From: CBDUXZ01 sp965371325 [NCBI: uncultured bacterium]
GTDB taxonomy: Bacteria; JAUYMQ01
Reading direction: 5' to 3'
Length of the DNA: 7,366 nt
Assembly: GCA_965371325.1 (NCBI GenBank)
Contig: CBDUXZ010000090.1
Location: 1 to 7,366 of the forward strand
Positions 2,809 through 7,092 of this stretch are shown here, one piece after another. Position 1 is the first letter of the stretch; each line of letters begins with the position of its first letter. The translations under genes and the position numbers were made by a program. The notes under the pieces are model-generated. The model had not been told where the DNA came from and did not search any database. It saw nothing but the letters and a program-made list of their open reading frames with translations.

Positions 2809-3219
2809 TCAGGCCGAGGCCCGCGCCCGTGTTGCAGCCCAGCGCCTGGAGCGCCGGAGAGTGCCGACCTGCTTTTCCAGTGACCGAACCTTCTTGTTGA
2901 GCGCTTCCACATCCTTGCGCTCCGGAAGATTGAGCAGCCGGAAAACCTGTGTTACGCCCTCGTCGACCGTCTTCTCGACCTCACGGCGAGCGTTCTTGAT
3001 GCGGCCCGTCACGCCGTTCTTCTGAATGTCCTTCAGGAGCTTGTTGACCTGCTTCCTCCCCTCGCGCTCCGCCTTCTTGCCTCTGCGGACGAACTGCTTC
3101 TGGAGCTTCTCCGCGTCGCGCTGCAGCTTGGAGAGGGTGTCGGCCAGACGATCGAGATTTTCCTCGATGACCTTAGGGAGCGGCAGCTGGCTGCTCGCAT
3201 TTGCTCTGGCTTTCGCCAT
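2809..3219 (-). CDS. phasin-like (polyhydroxyalkanoate granule-associated family) basic protein
   Basis: This 136-residue protein is predicted to be almost wholly helical. The block VFRLLNLPERKDVEALNKKVRSLEKQV (92-118) is characteristic of the PhaF/PhaI phasin family, where a short LGLPTRDDV-like turn precedes a coiled coil used for oligomerisation. Residues about 17-65 form another amphipathic, heptad-like helix, the part that would lie on a granule or membrane surface. It is strongly basic: by hand count 36 Lys/Arg against 17 Asp/Glu, ending in an Arg-rich tail (122-133), which hints at nucleic-acid binding as in PhaF, though the AAKP-type repeats of PhaF are absent. The start is certain: a full AAGGAGGT (3227-3234) lies 7 bases before the ATG. 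It is a single-gene unit with its own promoter, structured leader and terminator. No PHA synthase is in the window, so PHA granules are inferred from the family only; a nucleoid or membrane-adaptor role is possible. Confidence 0.75.
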   Translation of the reverse strand: MAKARANASSQLPLPKVIEENLDRLADTLSKLQRDAEKLQKQFVRRGKKAEREGRKQVNKLLKDIQKNGVTGRIKNARREVEKTVDEGVTQVFRLLNLPERKDVEALNKKVRSLEKQVGTLRRSRRWAATRARASA

Positions 3220-3462: not shown

Positions 3463-4458
3463 TCACCAGCGGATGATGGCGGACCCCCATGTGAAGCCCG
3501 AGCCAAAGCCGGCCATGCAGAGCAGCTGACCCTCCTTCACGCGGCCCATCTCAAGCAGCTCATCGAGCAGGATGGGGATCGCCGCCGCGGAGGTGTTTCC
3601 ATACTTCTGGATGTTGTTGTAGAGCTTCGATTCGGGAATTCCGAGGGAACCAGCGACGAATTCGTTGATGCGCAGGTTGGCCTGGTGGAAGAGGAAGTGA
3701 TCGATGTCGTCGAGTGCGAGCTTGTTGTGCTGCAGCGACTCGTTGATCACCTCGGGGAGCTTCACCACGGCGTGCTTGAAGACCAGCCGTCCCTGCATCT
3801 TCGGGAAGACGGTGCCTTCCTCGAACATTTCCCGCGTAATCCTAACGGGGTGATTAGCCGACCCCGGATGTTCGAGCCAGAGCGCCTTGGCGTAGCGGCC
3901 GTCGGCGTGGAGGTGGATCGACATGATCCCCCGATCCTCGTCCGTTGCCTCGAGAATGATGGCCCCGGCTCCGTCCCCGAAGATCACGGATACGTCGCGG
4001 CCTCGATCAGAAATGTCCAGGCCCGTGGAGTGCACCTCGGTTCCCACGACCAGAATGCGCTGGTAGGCCTCAGAGCGGATGAAGCTGTGTGCCGTGGAGA
4101 GCGCGTAGAGGATTCCCGTGCACTGGCAGCGGACGTCCATGGCAGGCACACCGGGAATTCCGAGGGTGGCGTTCAGGAAGGCCGAGGTCCCCGGAAACTC
4201 GTGCTCAGGAGAGAGGGTCGCCAGGATGATCAGGTCGATGTCGTCGTTCTTGAGCCCGGCATCGGCGATCGCCTTCTTGGATGCCTCGGTTGCGAGGGCG
4301 AGGGCCCCCACACCGTCCTCGGTCCAGTAACGGGTCGAGATCCCGGTGCGCTGACGGATCCACTCGTCCGAGGTGTCCATACGCTGGGCGAGATCATTAT
4401 TCGTGACGCAGATAGAAGGAATCGCGCGTCCGGTTCCGATAATTCGGGCATTCGGCAT
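3463..4458 (-). CDS. fabH: 3-oxoacyl-ACP synthase III (KAS III), initiation condensing enzyme
   Basis: FabH condenses an acyl-CoA primer with malonyl-ACP to start fatty-acid synthesis in the cytoplasm. The 331-residue protein has the thiolase-fold Cys-His-Asn triad: Cys113 in RCQCTGILYAL, His258 in FHQANLRI and Asn288 in KYGNTSAA. The DTSDEWIRQRTGI block (28-40), GDGAGA (161-166) and the terminal GFGSGFTWGSAI loop are also present. It is about 14 residues longer than the 317-residue E. coli enzyme, mainly in a loop at about 188-220 between LHADG and the MQGRLVFK block, and has Gln-Cys where E. coli has Ala-Cys. These traits suggest a side branch of KAS III that might use another primer (inference). 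The ATG at 4456-4458 has GGAGG (4463-4467) 4 bases upstream; in-frame ATG/GTG further up would sit inside the leader structures. It stands alone, without fabD, fabG or acpP. OleA- or PqsD-like activity is a less likely alternative. Confidence 0.9.
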   Translation of the reverse strand: MPNARIIGTGRAIPSICVTNNDLAQRMDTSDEWIRQRTGISTRYWTEDGVGALALATEASKKAIADAGLKNDDIDLIILATLSPEHEFPGTSAFLNATLGIPGVPAMDVRCQCTGILYALSTAHSFIRSEAYQRILVVGTEVHSTGLDISDRGRDVSVIFGDGAGAIILEATDEDRGIMSIHLHADGRYAKALWLEHPGSANHPVRITREMFEEGTVFPKMQGRLVFKHAVVKLPEVINESLQHNKLALDDIDHFLFHQANLRINEFVAGSLGIPESKLYNNIQKYGNTSAAAIPILLDELLEMGRVKEGQLLCMAGFGSGFTWGSAIIRW

Positions 4459-4474
4459 GAAGCCTCCAAATAAC

Positions 4475-4505
4475 GGGGGCCTGCCCCCCCCTGGACATGT
4501 GGGGG
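4475..4505 (-). other. G/C-run alternative hairpins in front of the fabH ribosome binding site
   Basis: A run of eight C (4484-4491) lies between runs of five G at 4475-4479 and 4501-4505. In the fabH mRNA the G8 run can pair with the downstream C5 (4-base loop, ending 7 bases before GGAGG) or with the upstream C5, but not fully with both. Homopolymer runs of this kind are also prone to slippage. Confidence 0.4.
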
Positions 4506-4548
4506 CCGATGTCACCAGGGACGAACGGTCTTTATCGAAGGGGCCGCG

Positions 4549-4579
4549 CCGGCGAGGGTGATCCATGTCACGGCGCCGG
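4549..4579 (-). other. hairpin in the hflX-fabH gap
   Basis: CCGGCG (4549-4554) pairs with CGCCGG (4574-4579), and an inner GTGA/TCAC stem (4558-4561 with 4568-4571) closes a 6-base loop, with a small internal loop between the stems. No T-run follows on the minus strand, so it is more likely a leader structure of fabH than an hflX terminator. GTGA-N6-TCAC could also be an operator half-site pair. Confidence 0.4.
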
Positions 4580-4667: not shown

Positions 4668-6383
4668 CTACCCGGGCGCATTCCCCTTTGATCGATTTGA
4701 CGCTTGGGCGGCGATCTTTTCACGCCAGAGAATGCCCTGGATGCGCGTCACGAGCGGCGGGAGGGTGCTGCGATCAAGGGCGGATACCGGCACCGCTTCG
4801 TGGGCCGCCGCCAGGTGGTTCACCAGGATCGAATCGGCCCGATCGAGCTTGTTCAGGACGAGTAGCCGGGGGATCTGCGCAAGCGACAGATCCTCGAGAA
4901 TTCGGGTCACCGCATCGCGCTGCGCCTCGAAACGGGGACTGGAGACGTCGGCCACGTGTAGAAGAAGATCGGCCTCGGAGAGTTCCTCGAGGGTGGCTTT
5001 GAAGGCGGCGATAAGATCCTTCGGCAGGTCGCGGATGAAGCCGACCGTGTCGGTGATGATGGCCTCCTGCTCCCGCGGGAAGCGAAGTCGCTTCGAGGCC
5101 GGATCGAGGGTCGCGAAGAGGCGGTCCGCCACCGGCGTCTTGCTGTTCGTAAGCGCGTTGAGAAGCGTGGACTTCCCTGCGTTCGTGTAGCCCACGATGG
5201 AGATGATGGGAAGCCCGCGGCGGTTACGGCGAGCGCGGCGCTGCGCGCGTCCACGCGACAGGGCGCGAACCTCCCGTTCGAGACGCGATATCCGGTCGCG
5301 GATGCGCCTGCGATCGACCTCTAGGCGCGTCTCGCCGGGCCCTCGGGCGCCGATTCCGCCGGCGAGTCGCGAGAGCGCATCGTCCCGCAGGCCGAGACGC
5401 GGGAGCATGTACCGGAGGTTGGCAAGCTCCACCTGCATCTTCCCGTCGCGGCTTCGGGCCCGCCGGCCGAAAATATCGAGGATGAGCTGCGTGCGATCGA
5501 TCACCCGCAAGCCGGTGGCCGAAGCCATCTCACGGCTCTGCGCGGGTGTGAGGTTTTGATCGACGATTAACGCGTCGGCGCCGAGTTGCGTGGCACGAAT
5601 GGTGAGCTCACCGAGCTTCCCTTTCCCGATGAGGGTCTTCGGATCGAACCTCGGACGGACCTGCGTGAACGCATCGACCACCTCCACGTTGCTCGACTGG
5701 GCGAGCTCCCGCAGCTCTTCGAGTTCAGCCTCCGCCTCGGGCGCCGCGCCCTTCGTCCTGACCTTCGCCAATATGGCCGTCTCCCGGCGCCCGGAGGCGG
5801 CGCGCGGCCCCTGCACCCGTGCAAACTCTTCCTCGAGATTGCGAATGAGATCTGTGAAATCGATGTCGAGCTTCGATGGATGGACGGGGTCGAGAAAACG
5901 GTAAGCCCCGGCGCGATCCGCCTCGCCAAGGGGCCGTCCGTTTCCCTTCCCCTCGGCGGGCCGGGGAAGCAGGTGGGCGACGTGGGTGGTGCGGGGAAGC
6001 CCGTTCTCATCGAGCCCGATAGCCGCAACGAGATCGAGTCGGAGAAGTGAGAGGTCGGTCAGGTCATCGCGTGACAGGGGTTCGTTCTTAAGATGGGTGT
6101 GGATGAAGCGAAGACCGCGGAAGCGCGATTCGCCGGCGCGCAGCCGCCCGAACTCCGGAAGGAAAATCGTGCGCGCGTCTCCGACGACGACGTACTCGAT
6201 TTGACCCTTTCGATTGACAAGCGCGCCTATCTGGCGACCGGTCTGGTGGCTGACTTCGCCGAGGTAGCGCGACAGCTCGGGGGTGACGATCCGGGAGGGC
6301 GGAATCTTGCGGCGGTAGACGTGCTGGATCCGCTTGGTCTGGCTGGGCTTGAGACCCTGGATGTTTCCGTATAGGCGATTCGT
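4668..6383 (-). CDS. hflX: GTPase HflX, long form with N-terminal extension (probable ACG start)
   Basis: HflX is a cytoplasmic GTPase that binds the 50S subunit and splits stalled ribosomes under stress. Read from ACG at 6381-6383 it has 571 residues. Residues 1-189 are an extra N-terminal region starting NRLYGNIQGLKPSQTKR, as in long HflX proteins, followed by the HflX domain with its glycine-rich GGIGARGPGETRLE segment (342-355) and coiled coil, then the G domain: G1 GYTNAGKS (398-405), G2 ATLDP (424-428), G3 DTVGF (445-449), G4 NKLD (511-514) and G5 SAL (534-536). The open frame runs unbroken to a stop near 6475, but no ATG, GTG or TTG occurs before codon 190 (GTG, 5814-5816). That GTG would discard conserved sequence, while GGAGG (6390-6394) lies 6 bases before the ACG. 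A true ACG start, an ATG-to-ACG base error, or ATC/CTG initiation are the alternatives. The gene is divergent from the universal stress gene. Confidence 0.88.
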   Translation of the reverse strand, partial: TNRLYGNIQGLKPSQTKRIQHVYRRKIPPSRIVTPELSRYLGEVSHQTGRQIGALVNRKGQIEYVVVGDARTIFLPEFGRLRAGESRFRGLRFIHTHLKNEPLSRDDLTDLSLLRLDLVAAIGLDENGLPRTTHVAHLLPRPAEGKGNGRPLGEADRAGAYRFLDPVHPSKLDIDFTDLIRNLEEEFARVQGPRAASGRRETAILAKVRTKGAAPEAEAELEELRELAQSSNVEVVDAFTQVRPRFDPKTLIGKGKLGELTIRATQLGADALIVDQNLTPAQSREMASATGLRVIDRTQLILDIFGRRARSRDGKMQVELANLRYMLPRLGLRDDALSRLAGGIGARGPGETRLEVDRRRIRDRISRLEREVRALSRGRAQRRARRNRRGLPIISIVGYTNAGKSTLLNALTNSKTPVADRLFATLDPASKRLRFPREQEAIITDTVGFIRDLPKDLIAAFKATLEELSEADLLLHVADVSSPRFEAQRDAVTRILEDLSLAQIPRLLVLNKLDRADSILVNHLAAAHEAVPVSALDRSTLPPLVTRIQGILWREKIAAQASNRSKGNAPG

Positions 6384-6609: not shown

Positions 6610-7092
6610 ATGGCAATGCCAGTCGTTCCCGTGAAGGTCGAGCGGATTCTCGTTCCTCTGTCTCTCTGCCCGCATTCCGAACAGGCCTTTCGCCTGGCCT
6701 ACGATCTGTCCGCACGCTTTGAATCGGAGATCTGCGCCATCCACATTTTCGCGGATCCCAAGGAGAAGGATGCGCTCTACTCTCCCGAGATTCGAGAAGA
6801 CGGGGTTTACGACAGGATTTTCCGCCAGCGTGTCGAGGAGATGCTGGAGCAGGCGGGCGCGAGCGAGAAGACCGTCAAGTCGACACGAACCATCGTTACG
6901 CACGGCCAGTTCGCCGAAGAGATTCTACGGGAGGCGAAGGACATGCGCGCGCACCTTATTGTGATGGGGACGCACTCTGACAAGACGCTCCAGCAGAACA
7001 TCATGGGGAGCACGATGACCAGGGTTCTGAGGCAGGCGCCATGCCCCGTTCTGACCATCCGGTATCCCGTTGGCGGGGAGGGCGACGACTGA
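6610..7092 (+). CDS. universal stress protein (UspA family), degenerate ATP motif
   Basis: This 160-residue single-domain cytoplasmic protein has the UspA fold pattern: first strand ERILVPLSLCPHSEQAFRLAYDLSARF (11-37), central helix REDGVYDRIFRQRVEEMLE (62-80), strand HLIVMGTHS (115-123) and the terminal GST...VLRQAPCPVLTI block (133-150). Members bind ATP or act as stress-tolerance factors through partners. The ATP loop normally reads G-x2-G-x9-G-S/T; here it is Gly120-x2-Ser123-x9-Gly133-Ser134, and the adenine-contacting Asp after the first strand is replaced (VPLS, Ser18). Nucleotide binding is therefore doubtful. The start at 6610 follows AGGGAGGT (6597-6604) with 5-base spacing; the ATG at 6616 is an in-frame alternative. 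It is divergent from hflX, with which it may share stress control (inference), and is followed by a terminator. Confidence 0.9.
   Translation: MAMPVVPVKVERILVPLSLCPHSEQAFRLAYDLSARFESEICAIHIFADPKEKDALYSPEIREDGVYDRIFRQRVEEMLEQAGASEKTVKSTRTIVTHGQFAEEILREAKDMRAHLIVMGTHSDKTLQQNIMGSTMTRVLRQAPCPVLTIRYPVGGEGDD

What the first reader, a model, noticed from the sequence alone, without database searches (positions are those of the whole stretch)
6040..6240. JAMM/RadC-like motif in the N-terminal extension of HflX
In the extension (residues about 52-125) a strand-rich stretch (IGALVNRKGQIEYVVVGD) is followed by GLRFIHTHLKNEPLSRDDLTDL. His95-x-His97-x6-Ser104-x2-Asp107 closely follows the H-x-H-x7-S-x2-D metal signature of JAB/MPN (JAMM) and RadC proteins, with the usual HxHP proline replaced by Leu and one residue fewer in the spacer. 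The following LRLDLVAAIGLDENG also resembles the helix-strand after the motif in that fold. If real, this HflX carries a JAMM-type, perhaps metal-binding or peptidase-like, domain in front of a ribosome-splitting GTPase.
Basis: partly seen in the sequence, partly recalled or inferred. Interest (0 to 1): 0.6.

Follow-up and report, generated by a model that had tools for sequence, protein, structure and literature searches.

The report
Hidden JAMM-like domain in HflX
A bacterial ribosome-splitting protein carries an extra front domain that is predicted to fold like a JAMM metallopeptidase but lacks its key catalytic residue, and its gene appears to begin with an unusual weak start codon like that of the gene for initiation factor IF3, which hides the domain from ordinary annotation and suggests an untested link between the two.

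Summary
The motif is real: minus strand 6101-6063 encodes HTHLKNEPLSRDD, and relatives keep it. Across 270 distinct relatives His95 is kept in 260, His97 in 247, Ser/Thr104 in 230, Asp107 in 264. Two AlphaFold2 models of the extension (pLDDT 87 and 93) match JAMM/MPN structures best (PfJAMM1, Z 7.5 and 8.3), though profile-profile comparison is not significant. So the fold call is supported, with middling scores. A Fusobacterium relative has Glu plus an exact HTHP-x6-S-x2-D motif.

The larger surprise lies upstream. The window frame has no ATG/GTG/TTG before 5816, codon 190, near the end of the extension. Coding conservation begins at ACG 6383-6381, six bases after GGAGG. In relatives the equivalent codon is ATT/ATC/ATA in 142 of 270, 140 of them with a Shine-Dalgarno motif; of 75 with a canonical codon there, 63 lack one. 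infC in sampled genomes of the same groups has ATA/ATC/ATT in 44 of 47 loci. I infer IF3-sensitive expression of a long HflX with a degenerate JAMM-type domain; IF3 control is untested.

The parts
4668..6383 (-). hflX, 571 codons plus stop, read from the proposed ACG start; HflX core matches TIGR03156 over residues 198-544 of the 566-aa piece scanned (which begins at 6368)
   Evidence: coding boundary by comparison with L001
6390..6394 (-). Shine-Dalgarno GGAGG, 6 bases before the proposed start
   Evidence: sequence; pattern shared by relatives
6381..6383 (-). proposed near-cognate start codon ACG (ACG also in L001; ATT/ATC/ATA at this place in 142 of 270 rows)
5820..6368 (-). N-terminal extension with predicted JAMM/MPN-like fold (structural matches span about domain residues 24-173); no Pfam or NCBIfam match on its own at E 10 or better
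6231..6233 (-). Gln51, the position that best fits the JAMM catalytic Glu; Gln in 253 of 270 rows, Glu in 6
   Evidence: assignment by eye against RadC sequences printed
6063..6101 (-). degenerate JAMM motif HTHLKNEPLSRDD (His95, His97, Ser104, Asp107)
4668..5816 (-). the ORF as a start-codon-based lister sees it (GTG 5816 = codon 190 from ACG), which drops nearly the whole extension

Best explanation
This is a long form of the ribosome-splitting GTPase HflX with an extra N-terminal domain of JAMM/MPN-like fold, translated from a near-cognate start codon. Shown by sequence: coding conservation begins at or about ACG 6383 behind a Shine-Dalgarno motif, and the domain is conserved in several phyla with its His-x-His...Ser/Thr...Asp positions. 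Supported by prediction only: the JAMM/MPN fold. Inferred: the domain may bind a metal ion but is not a working JAMM peptidase in this lineage, because the catalytic Glu position is Gln; it more likely serves as a binding or positioning module for HflX on the ribosome. Also inferred: because IF3 represses initiation on codons other than AUG, GUG and UUG, HflX output should rise when IF3 is scarce relative to initiating ribosomes, as for infC itself. That would tie subunit splitting (HflX) to initiation fidelity and anti-association (IF3).
For: Fold. Residue conservation. Start: of 270 distinct rows the codon five before the conserved Gly is ATT/ATC/ATA in 142, and 112 of 270 have no ATG/GTG/TTG between the upstream stop and the domain. 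A Shine-Dalgarno motif (4+ bases, spacing 3-12) is present in 140 of 142 ATH rows against 16.4% in shuffles, and in 12 of 75 with a canonical codon there; Fisher p 1.3e-39 (rows are related, so p overstates). Window versus L001: identity by codon position 0.908/0.914/0.557 over 185 codons from ACG, 0.15/0.41/0.35 over 34 codons upstream. 165 pairs among 99 ATH loci show three-base periodicity starting at that codon. Flanking genes as control: with a 5-base SD, 47 of 228 have a canonical start and 9 only ATH (172 neither); hflX 2 and 119 of 266 (145 neither). infC in 50 sampled genomes: ATH behind an SD in 44 of 47 loci found. IF3 repression of such codons: PMC5472188, passages seen.
Against: hhalign against RadC and JAB was not significant and no better than shuffled columns; a profile search of PDB sequences found no JAMM protein. 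No Foldseek match reached E 0.001, and unrelated entries are mixed in; Z is middling (7.5, 8.3). No coordinates were inspected, so the metal-site geometry is unchecked. His95 is lost in 10 of 270 (Arg in 8), His97 in 23 of 270, so the site is dispensable in some. IF3 control is inferred from codon identity only; no expression data. In the class of G003, 60 of 62 rows start canonically, often directly behind dnaB, although infC there still has ATH, so such control would not be universal for long HflX. 14 of the 142 ATH rows also have a canonical codon within eight codons before the domain (difference).
Confidence: 0.68

Rival explanations
1. The domain is an active JAMM-type metallopeptidase that cuts a ribosome-associated or stalled-peptide substrate, with Gln51 or another residue doing the work of the usual Glu.
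For: His95, His97, Ser/Thr104 and Asp107 are strongly conserved. A Fusobacterium relative has Glu at the equivalent place and the exact HTHP-x6-S-x2-D motif.
Against: Gln at the equivalent position in 253 of 270; Leu for the motif Pro in 255 of 270. His95 is lost in 10 of 270.
Confidence: 0.12
2. The near-cognate start merely sets a low, constant HflX level; IF3 sensitivity is incidental and not selected.
For: Rows with a canonical codon at the place mostly lack a Shine-Dalgarno motif (63 of 75), so weak initiation of any kind may be what is kept. E. coli hflX starts with TTG. In the class of G003 hflX is canonical while infC is ATH, so the two do not simply co-vary.
Against: infC in sampled genomes of the same groups uses the same codon type (44 of 47 loci), and ATH with a strong SD is kept in rows from Acidobacteriota, Nitrospirae and Geobacteraceae-centred samples.
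Confidence: 0.3
3. Translation really begins at a canonical codon further downstream and the upstream conservation reflects something else, for example an RNA element.
For: A start-codon-based ORF lister chooses such a start.
Against: Codon-periodic conservation of the domain, a confident protein fold, and relatives with ATG at the same place.
Confidence: 0.03
4. The fold match is only a common alpha/beta arrangement and the domain is not related to JAMM/MPN.
For: Z 7.5 and 8.3 are in the range the tool calls middling; no Foldseek E below 0.001 and unrelated entries mixed in; hhalign not significant.
Against: Nearly all listed VIA matches are of one superfamily for two models; the His-x-His...Ser...Asp motif is conserved; the Fusobacterium extension gives RadC (E 0.037) and Prok-JAB (E 0.097) as first and third of three weak, sub-threshold Pfam hits.
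Confidence: 0.12

Closest known systems
JAMM/MPN+ metallopeptidases (PfJAMM1, AF2198, AMSH, RPN11, CSN5; Prok-JAB PF14464)
   Same: Best structural matches; His-x-His...Ser/Thr...Asp retained
   Different: Gln at the presumed catalytic Glu, Leu for the motif Pro, spacer one residue shorter, no significant profile match
RadC (PF04002, structure 2qlc)
   Same: MPN-type fold, Z 6.4 and 6.3; by eye the RadC strand with Glu (KKEFFISVLLD in L222) lines up with RQIGALVN
   Different: The RadC sequences keep Glu and HNHP; not significant by hhalign
infC near-cognate start (ATT in E. coli, ATC in Streptomyces; PMC5472188, passages seen)
   Same: ATH codon behind a strong SD; infC in sampled genomes of the same groups does this in 44 of 47 loci
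   Different: Different gene; IF3 control of hflX untested; the window codon is ACG
Streptomyces sigR GTC start repressed by IF3 (PMC5472188, passages seen)
   Same: A gene other than infC with a non-canonical start that IF3 represses
   Different: Different codon, gene and phylum; shown by experiment there, inferred here
Mycobacterial HflX N-terminal extension (PMC12493154, passages seen)
   Same: HflX with extra N-terminal residues
   Different: 39-58 residues there, about 185 with a globular predicted fold here; the passages seen name Actinobacteria, Clostridium and Paenibacilli, not these phyla, and no MPN fold

Membership tests
HflX (TIGR03156) | score over the curated family cut-off | tested here: met
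   436.2 bits against cut-off 216.75
JAMM/MPN superfamily (fold) | MPN fold | tested here: inconclusive
   predicted fold only; listed VIA matches nearly all MPN at Z 5.5-8.3, a range the tool calls middling
JAMM peptidase (MPN+) | His-x-His and downstream Asp metal ligands | tested here: met
   present in the window; 260, 247 and 264 of 270 rows; geometry not inspected
JAMM peptidase (MPN+) | H-x-H-P-x6-S-x2-D exactly | tested here: not met
   Leu for Pro and one residue fewer in the window; exact in the Fusobacterium relative
JAMM peptidase (MPN+) | catalytic Glu on the upstream strand | tested here: not met
   best-fitting position is Gln51; Gln in 253 of 270; the assignment is by eye
JAMM peptidase (MPN+) | metal-dependent isopeptidase activity | not testable with these tools
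   needs protein
RadC / Prok-JAB Pfam families | match over the family cut-off | tested here: not met
   no match at E 10 or better for the window extension; Fusobacterium extension 14.4 and 13.0 bits against cut-offs 22.1 and 25
infC-type near-cognate start | codon one base from AUG, behind an SD, at the onset of coding conservation | tested here: met
infC-type near-cognate start | repression by IF3 | not testable with these tools
   needs reporter assays

The most novel reading that the evidence does not exclude
Long hflX is a second gene, beside infC, kept in several phyla under a near-cognate start codon with a strong Shine-Dalgarno motif, so that IF3 level co-regulates the factor that splits ribosomes and the factor that keeps subunits apart; the HflX it makes carries a degenerate JAMM-type domain that start-codon-based gene calling hides.
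Probability: 0.45. Interest if true: 0.85.

Novelty: new variant of a known kind. Interest (0 to 1): 0.7.

Why it matters
If right, a whole domain of a ribosome-rescue GTPase is cut off by gene calling that relies on ATG/GTG/TTG, and hflX joins a short list of bacterial genes with a conserved near-cognate start. Both are directly testable: one codon change in a reporter tests IF3 control, and one purified domain tests metal binding.

Tried and rejected
Glu63 as catalytic Glu: rejected, not conserved. Sequence-profile proof of JAMM homology: hhalign of the 77-row alignment gave E 0.088 over 8 columns outside the motif (12 RadC sequences) and E 0.24 over 59 columns in the motif register (9 JAB sequences); the 270-row alignment gave 0.087 and 0.079; 40 column shuffles per family reached higher scores. 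A profile search of PDB sequences gave one irrelevant hit at E 0.26. Leaderless translation as the general explanation of canonical-start rows: only a part; TATAAT-like boxes (5 or 6 of 6) in 12 of 75 against 2.45 in shuffles, 0 of 142 for ATH. Translational coupling: ATGA overlap with an upstream ORF of 60+ codons in 28 of 74 rows canonical at the place, 12 of 29 canonical nearby, 0 of 137 ATH (24 of 137 ATH have some ORF ending nearby); the upstream ORF is dnaB in the two checked by Pfam; a DnaB motif lies just upstream in 61 of 118 rows with a canonical codon within eight codons (14 of these 118 also have ATH at the place), 1 of 128 other ATH rows, 0 of 24 remaining rows. A first control, distance from stop to first canonical codon in long flanking ORFs, was noisy (27 of 169 over 40 codons against 80 of 266 for hflX) and was replaced, which scans 40 codons for controls and 20 for hflX. 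Short HflX of genomes without the extension: canonical codons are near the N-domain in most of 22 loci, but its edge was placed poorly in several, so I draw little from it; L369 shows ATC behind an SD. Of 25 Acidobacteriota-centred genomes without the extension 22 have an HflX N-domain; of 5 Nitrospirae-centred ones (6 lacked the extension, 5 were searched) none has. The extension was not found in phages at E 0.01; in plasmid records only in Fusobacterium; a viral-contig scan with the Fusobacterium form found none. Paper library, listings only: hflX with JAMM 3 papers, with leaderless 15, with start codon and AUU 0, with MPN and N-terminal domain 0; a broader start-codon search held 599 papers, 20 listed, none of the 20 with hflX. 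A preprint on genes preferring non-AUG starts is known to me by recall only; one search listed four papers holding that phrase, which I did not open. VIA rows: no family is excluded by absence.

Rows dropped: A1 used 76 of 80 loci plus the window (L033 and L052 too short; L019 and L055 left out by me); A2 used 45 of 80 loci plus the window. The 270 rows are distinct by their first 150 domain bases; they come from the window, the 80 nearest loci, the Fusobacterium record and samples of four groups: up to 30 best loci per search plus, by the fetch from genomes, the 25 and 17 remaining places in the phyla of G004 and G005 and 37 (about every third) of the rest in the class of G003. Three loci fetched last in the phylum of G006 were not added. 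The four groups are not a random sample of bacteria.

Full report
What was checked. The HflX core is unambiguous: TIGR03156, 436.2 bits. The extension alone matches no Pfam or NCBIfam model at E 10 or better.

Conservation. A scan of genome contigs found 100 relatives and kept 80, L001 at 84% identity and the others at 41-58% over the best segment. In 81 aligned sequences (window + 80) His95, Thr96, Leu98, Leu103, Asp107, Asp110, Leu114 and Asp117 are invariant, as are three Gly; His97 is 77 of 81. In 270 distinct sequences: His95 260 (Arg 8), His97 247 (Gln 14), Ser/Thr104 230 (Asn 32, Asp 7), Asp107 264, residue 51 Gln 253, Pro 8, Glu 6. At least seven sequences have both Pro51 and Arg95 (top of its motif list). 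The only HTHP in the set is the Fusobacterium relative, which also has Glu at the place of Gln51 and the exact JAMM spacing.

Fold. Two AlphaFold2 models, one led by the window (77 sequences, pLDDT 87.3, pTM 0.84) and one by a Leptospiraceae relative trimmed to the core (46 sequences, 93.1, 0.88), have PfJAMM1 as first Foldseek match (E 4.1e-3 and 3.1e-3). No Foldseek match reaches E 0.001, and unrelated proteins appear from rank 7 and rank 4 on. VIA re-alignment of Foldseek's candidates gave 5ld9 at Z 7.5 (113 aligned, rmsd 3.9) and Z 8.3 (109 aligned, rmsd 3.3), followed among others by AMSH/Sst2, RPN11, CSN5, BRCC36, Prp8 Jab1, Cap3 and RadC (several chain identities recalled). The tool warns that Z under 8 can be a common arrangement; what persuades me is that nearly all listed rows belong to one superfamily, in two models, with the signature residues conserved. 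Sequence profiles do not confirm it; the Fusobacterium extension alone gives RadC and Prok-JAB as weak, sub-threshold hits over the motif.

Catalysis. RadC sequences printed have Glu at the start of the strand that corresponds, by eye, to RQIGALVN in the window; that position is Gln51. An E280A mutant of AMSH and an E286A mutant of Sst2 are among the listed structures; that these Glu residues are catalytic is recalled. So I do not file the domain as a JAMM peptidase. A metal-binding, non-peptidase module is my reading for this lineage; the Fusobacterium form could be active.

The start codon. The frame has no ATG/GTG/TTG between its upstream stop and GTG 5816, which is codon 190 from ACG. L001 has ACG at the same place; in the window GGAGG precedes it by six bases. 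Identity by codon position between window and L001 is 0.908, 0.914, 0.557 over 185 codons from ACG, and 0.15, 0.41, 0.35 over 34 codons upstream: coding starts at or about ACG.

Relatives. Of 270 rows (window included), codon -5 is ATT/ATC/ATA in 142 (57 ATC, 54 ATT, 31 ATA), a canonical start in 75; 29 more have a canonical start at a neighbouring place, 7 have ACG at -5 or -4, 17 are other. By eye in the listing at least 14 of those 17 have an ATH codon at -7, -6 or -4. By group, ATH at -5: 49 of 80 rows of the nearest loci, 15 of 28 in the phylum of G002 (a Chloracidobacterium locus), 46 of 54 in the phylum of G004 (a Nitrospirae locus), 32 of 44 in the phylum of G005 (a Geobacteraceae locus), 0 of 62 in the class of G003 (Desulfatibacillum), 0 of 1 Fusobacterium; the window has ACG. 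SD motifs: 140 of 142 ATH against 12 of 75 canonical (Fisher p 1.3e-39; rows are related, so the p value overstates). Periodic conservation starts at codon -5 in 165 pairs among 99 ATH loci; the first two bases of that codon are fixed by the choice of rows, but codons -4 to -1 are largely periodic and -6 and -7 are not. Of 228 flanking genes 47 have a 5-base SD with a canonical start, 9 with ATH only and 172 neither, scanned over 40 codons; of 266 hflX rows 2, 119 and 145.

infC as comparison. infC was found in 19 of 20 and 28 of 30 genomes; of these 47 loci 44 have an ATH codon behind an SD near the start, one has ATG, two gave no candidate, one of which shows ATA behind a G run. The scan covers 40 codons, so a few may be chance. 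The Leptospiraceae genome has ATG for both genes. The second infC set comes from the class of G003, where hflX itself is canonical, so the two genes do not simply co-vary.

Canonical relatives. 28 of 74 at -5 and 12 of 29 nearby have an ATGA overlap with an upstream ORF, which is dnaB in two checked by Pfam. A DnaB motif lies just upstream in 61 of 118 rows with a canonical codon within eight codons (14 of these also ATH at -5), 1 of 128 other ATH rows and 0 of 24 remaining rows. So a stand-alone long hflX tends to have SD plus ATH, and one behind dnaB has a canonical start, mostly without SD.

Distribution. The extension is found in 142 of 147 genomes of the class of G003, 47 of 59 of the phylum of G005, 55 of 61 of the phylum of G004, 29 of 99 of the phylum of G002 and 4 of 60 of the phylum of G006. 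The phylum of G001, the genome of the nearest relative L001, holds a single genome in the collection. No Bacillota genome could be sampled.

Mechanism. [quoted passage not shown] infC has ATT in E. coli and ATC in Streptomyces, giving autoregulation; and Streptomyces sigR (GTC) is repressed by IF3 (PMC5472188, passages seen). Applied to long hflX, low IF3 relative to initiating ribosomes should raise HflX. That HflX is a ribosome-splitting factor is the title of PMC4770234 (listing). The loop itself is inference. A review of HflX describes 39-58 residue mycobacterial extensions and mentions Clostridium and Paenibacilli; the term start codon does not occur in its main text (PMC12493154, find on selected terms).

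Noticed in passing
L081:2492-4294 (Fusobacterium animalis plasmid record): HflX with an intact JAMM signature: Glu at the place of Gln51 and HTHP-x6-S-x2-D; ordinary SD plus ATG start. Possibly an active version of the domain.
   Followed up: partly
L014:1541-2986 and L005:1508-2986: dnaB ends in an ATGA overlap with the long hflX ATG, suggesting translational coupling of replicative helicase and HflX in Desulfobacteria-type genomes.
   Followed up: partly
L319-L365: infC has ATA, ATC or ATT behind a strong SD in 44 of 47 loci; the Leptospiraceae one has ATG.
   Followed up: yes
L056, L062, L068, L074, L076, within about 15 bases before the ATG: TAAAAT-type -10 boxes close before the ATG, as expected for leaderless transcripts, in Magnetominusculus-type Nitrospirae.
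   Followed up: partly
L318:2173 (E. coli MG1655): The short hflX of E. coli starts with TTG, also a weak start.
   Followed up: no
window 6610-7092: An ORF on the plus strand whose sequence looks like a universal stress protein (recalled resemblance, not searched), divergent from hflX.
   Followed up: no
window 2809-3219 and 3463-4566: ORFs on the minus strand resembling a phasin-like coiled protein and a 3-oxoacyl-ACP synthase III (recalled resemblance, not searched).
   Followed up: no
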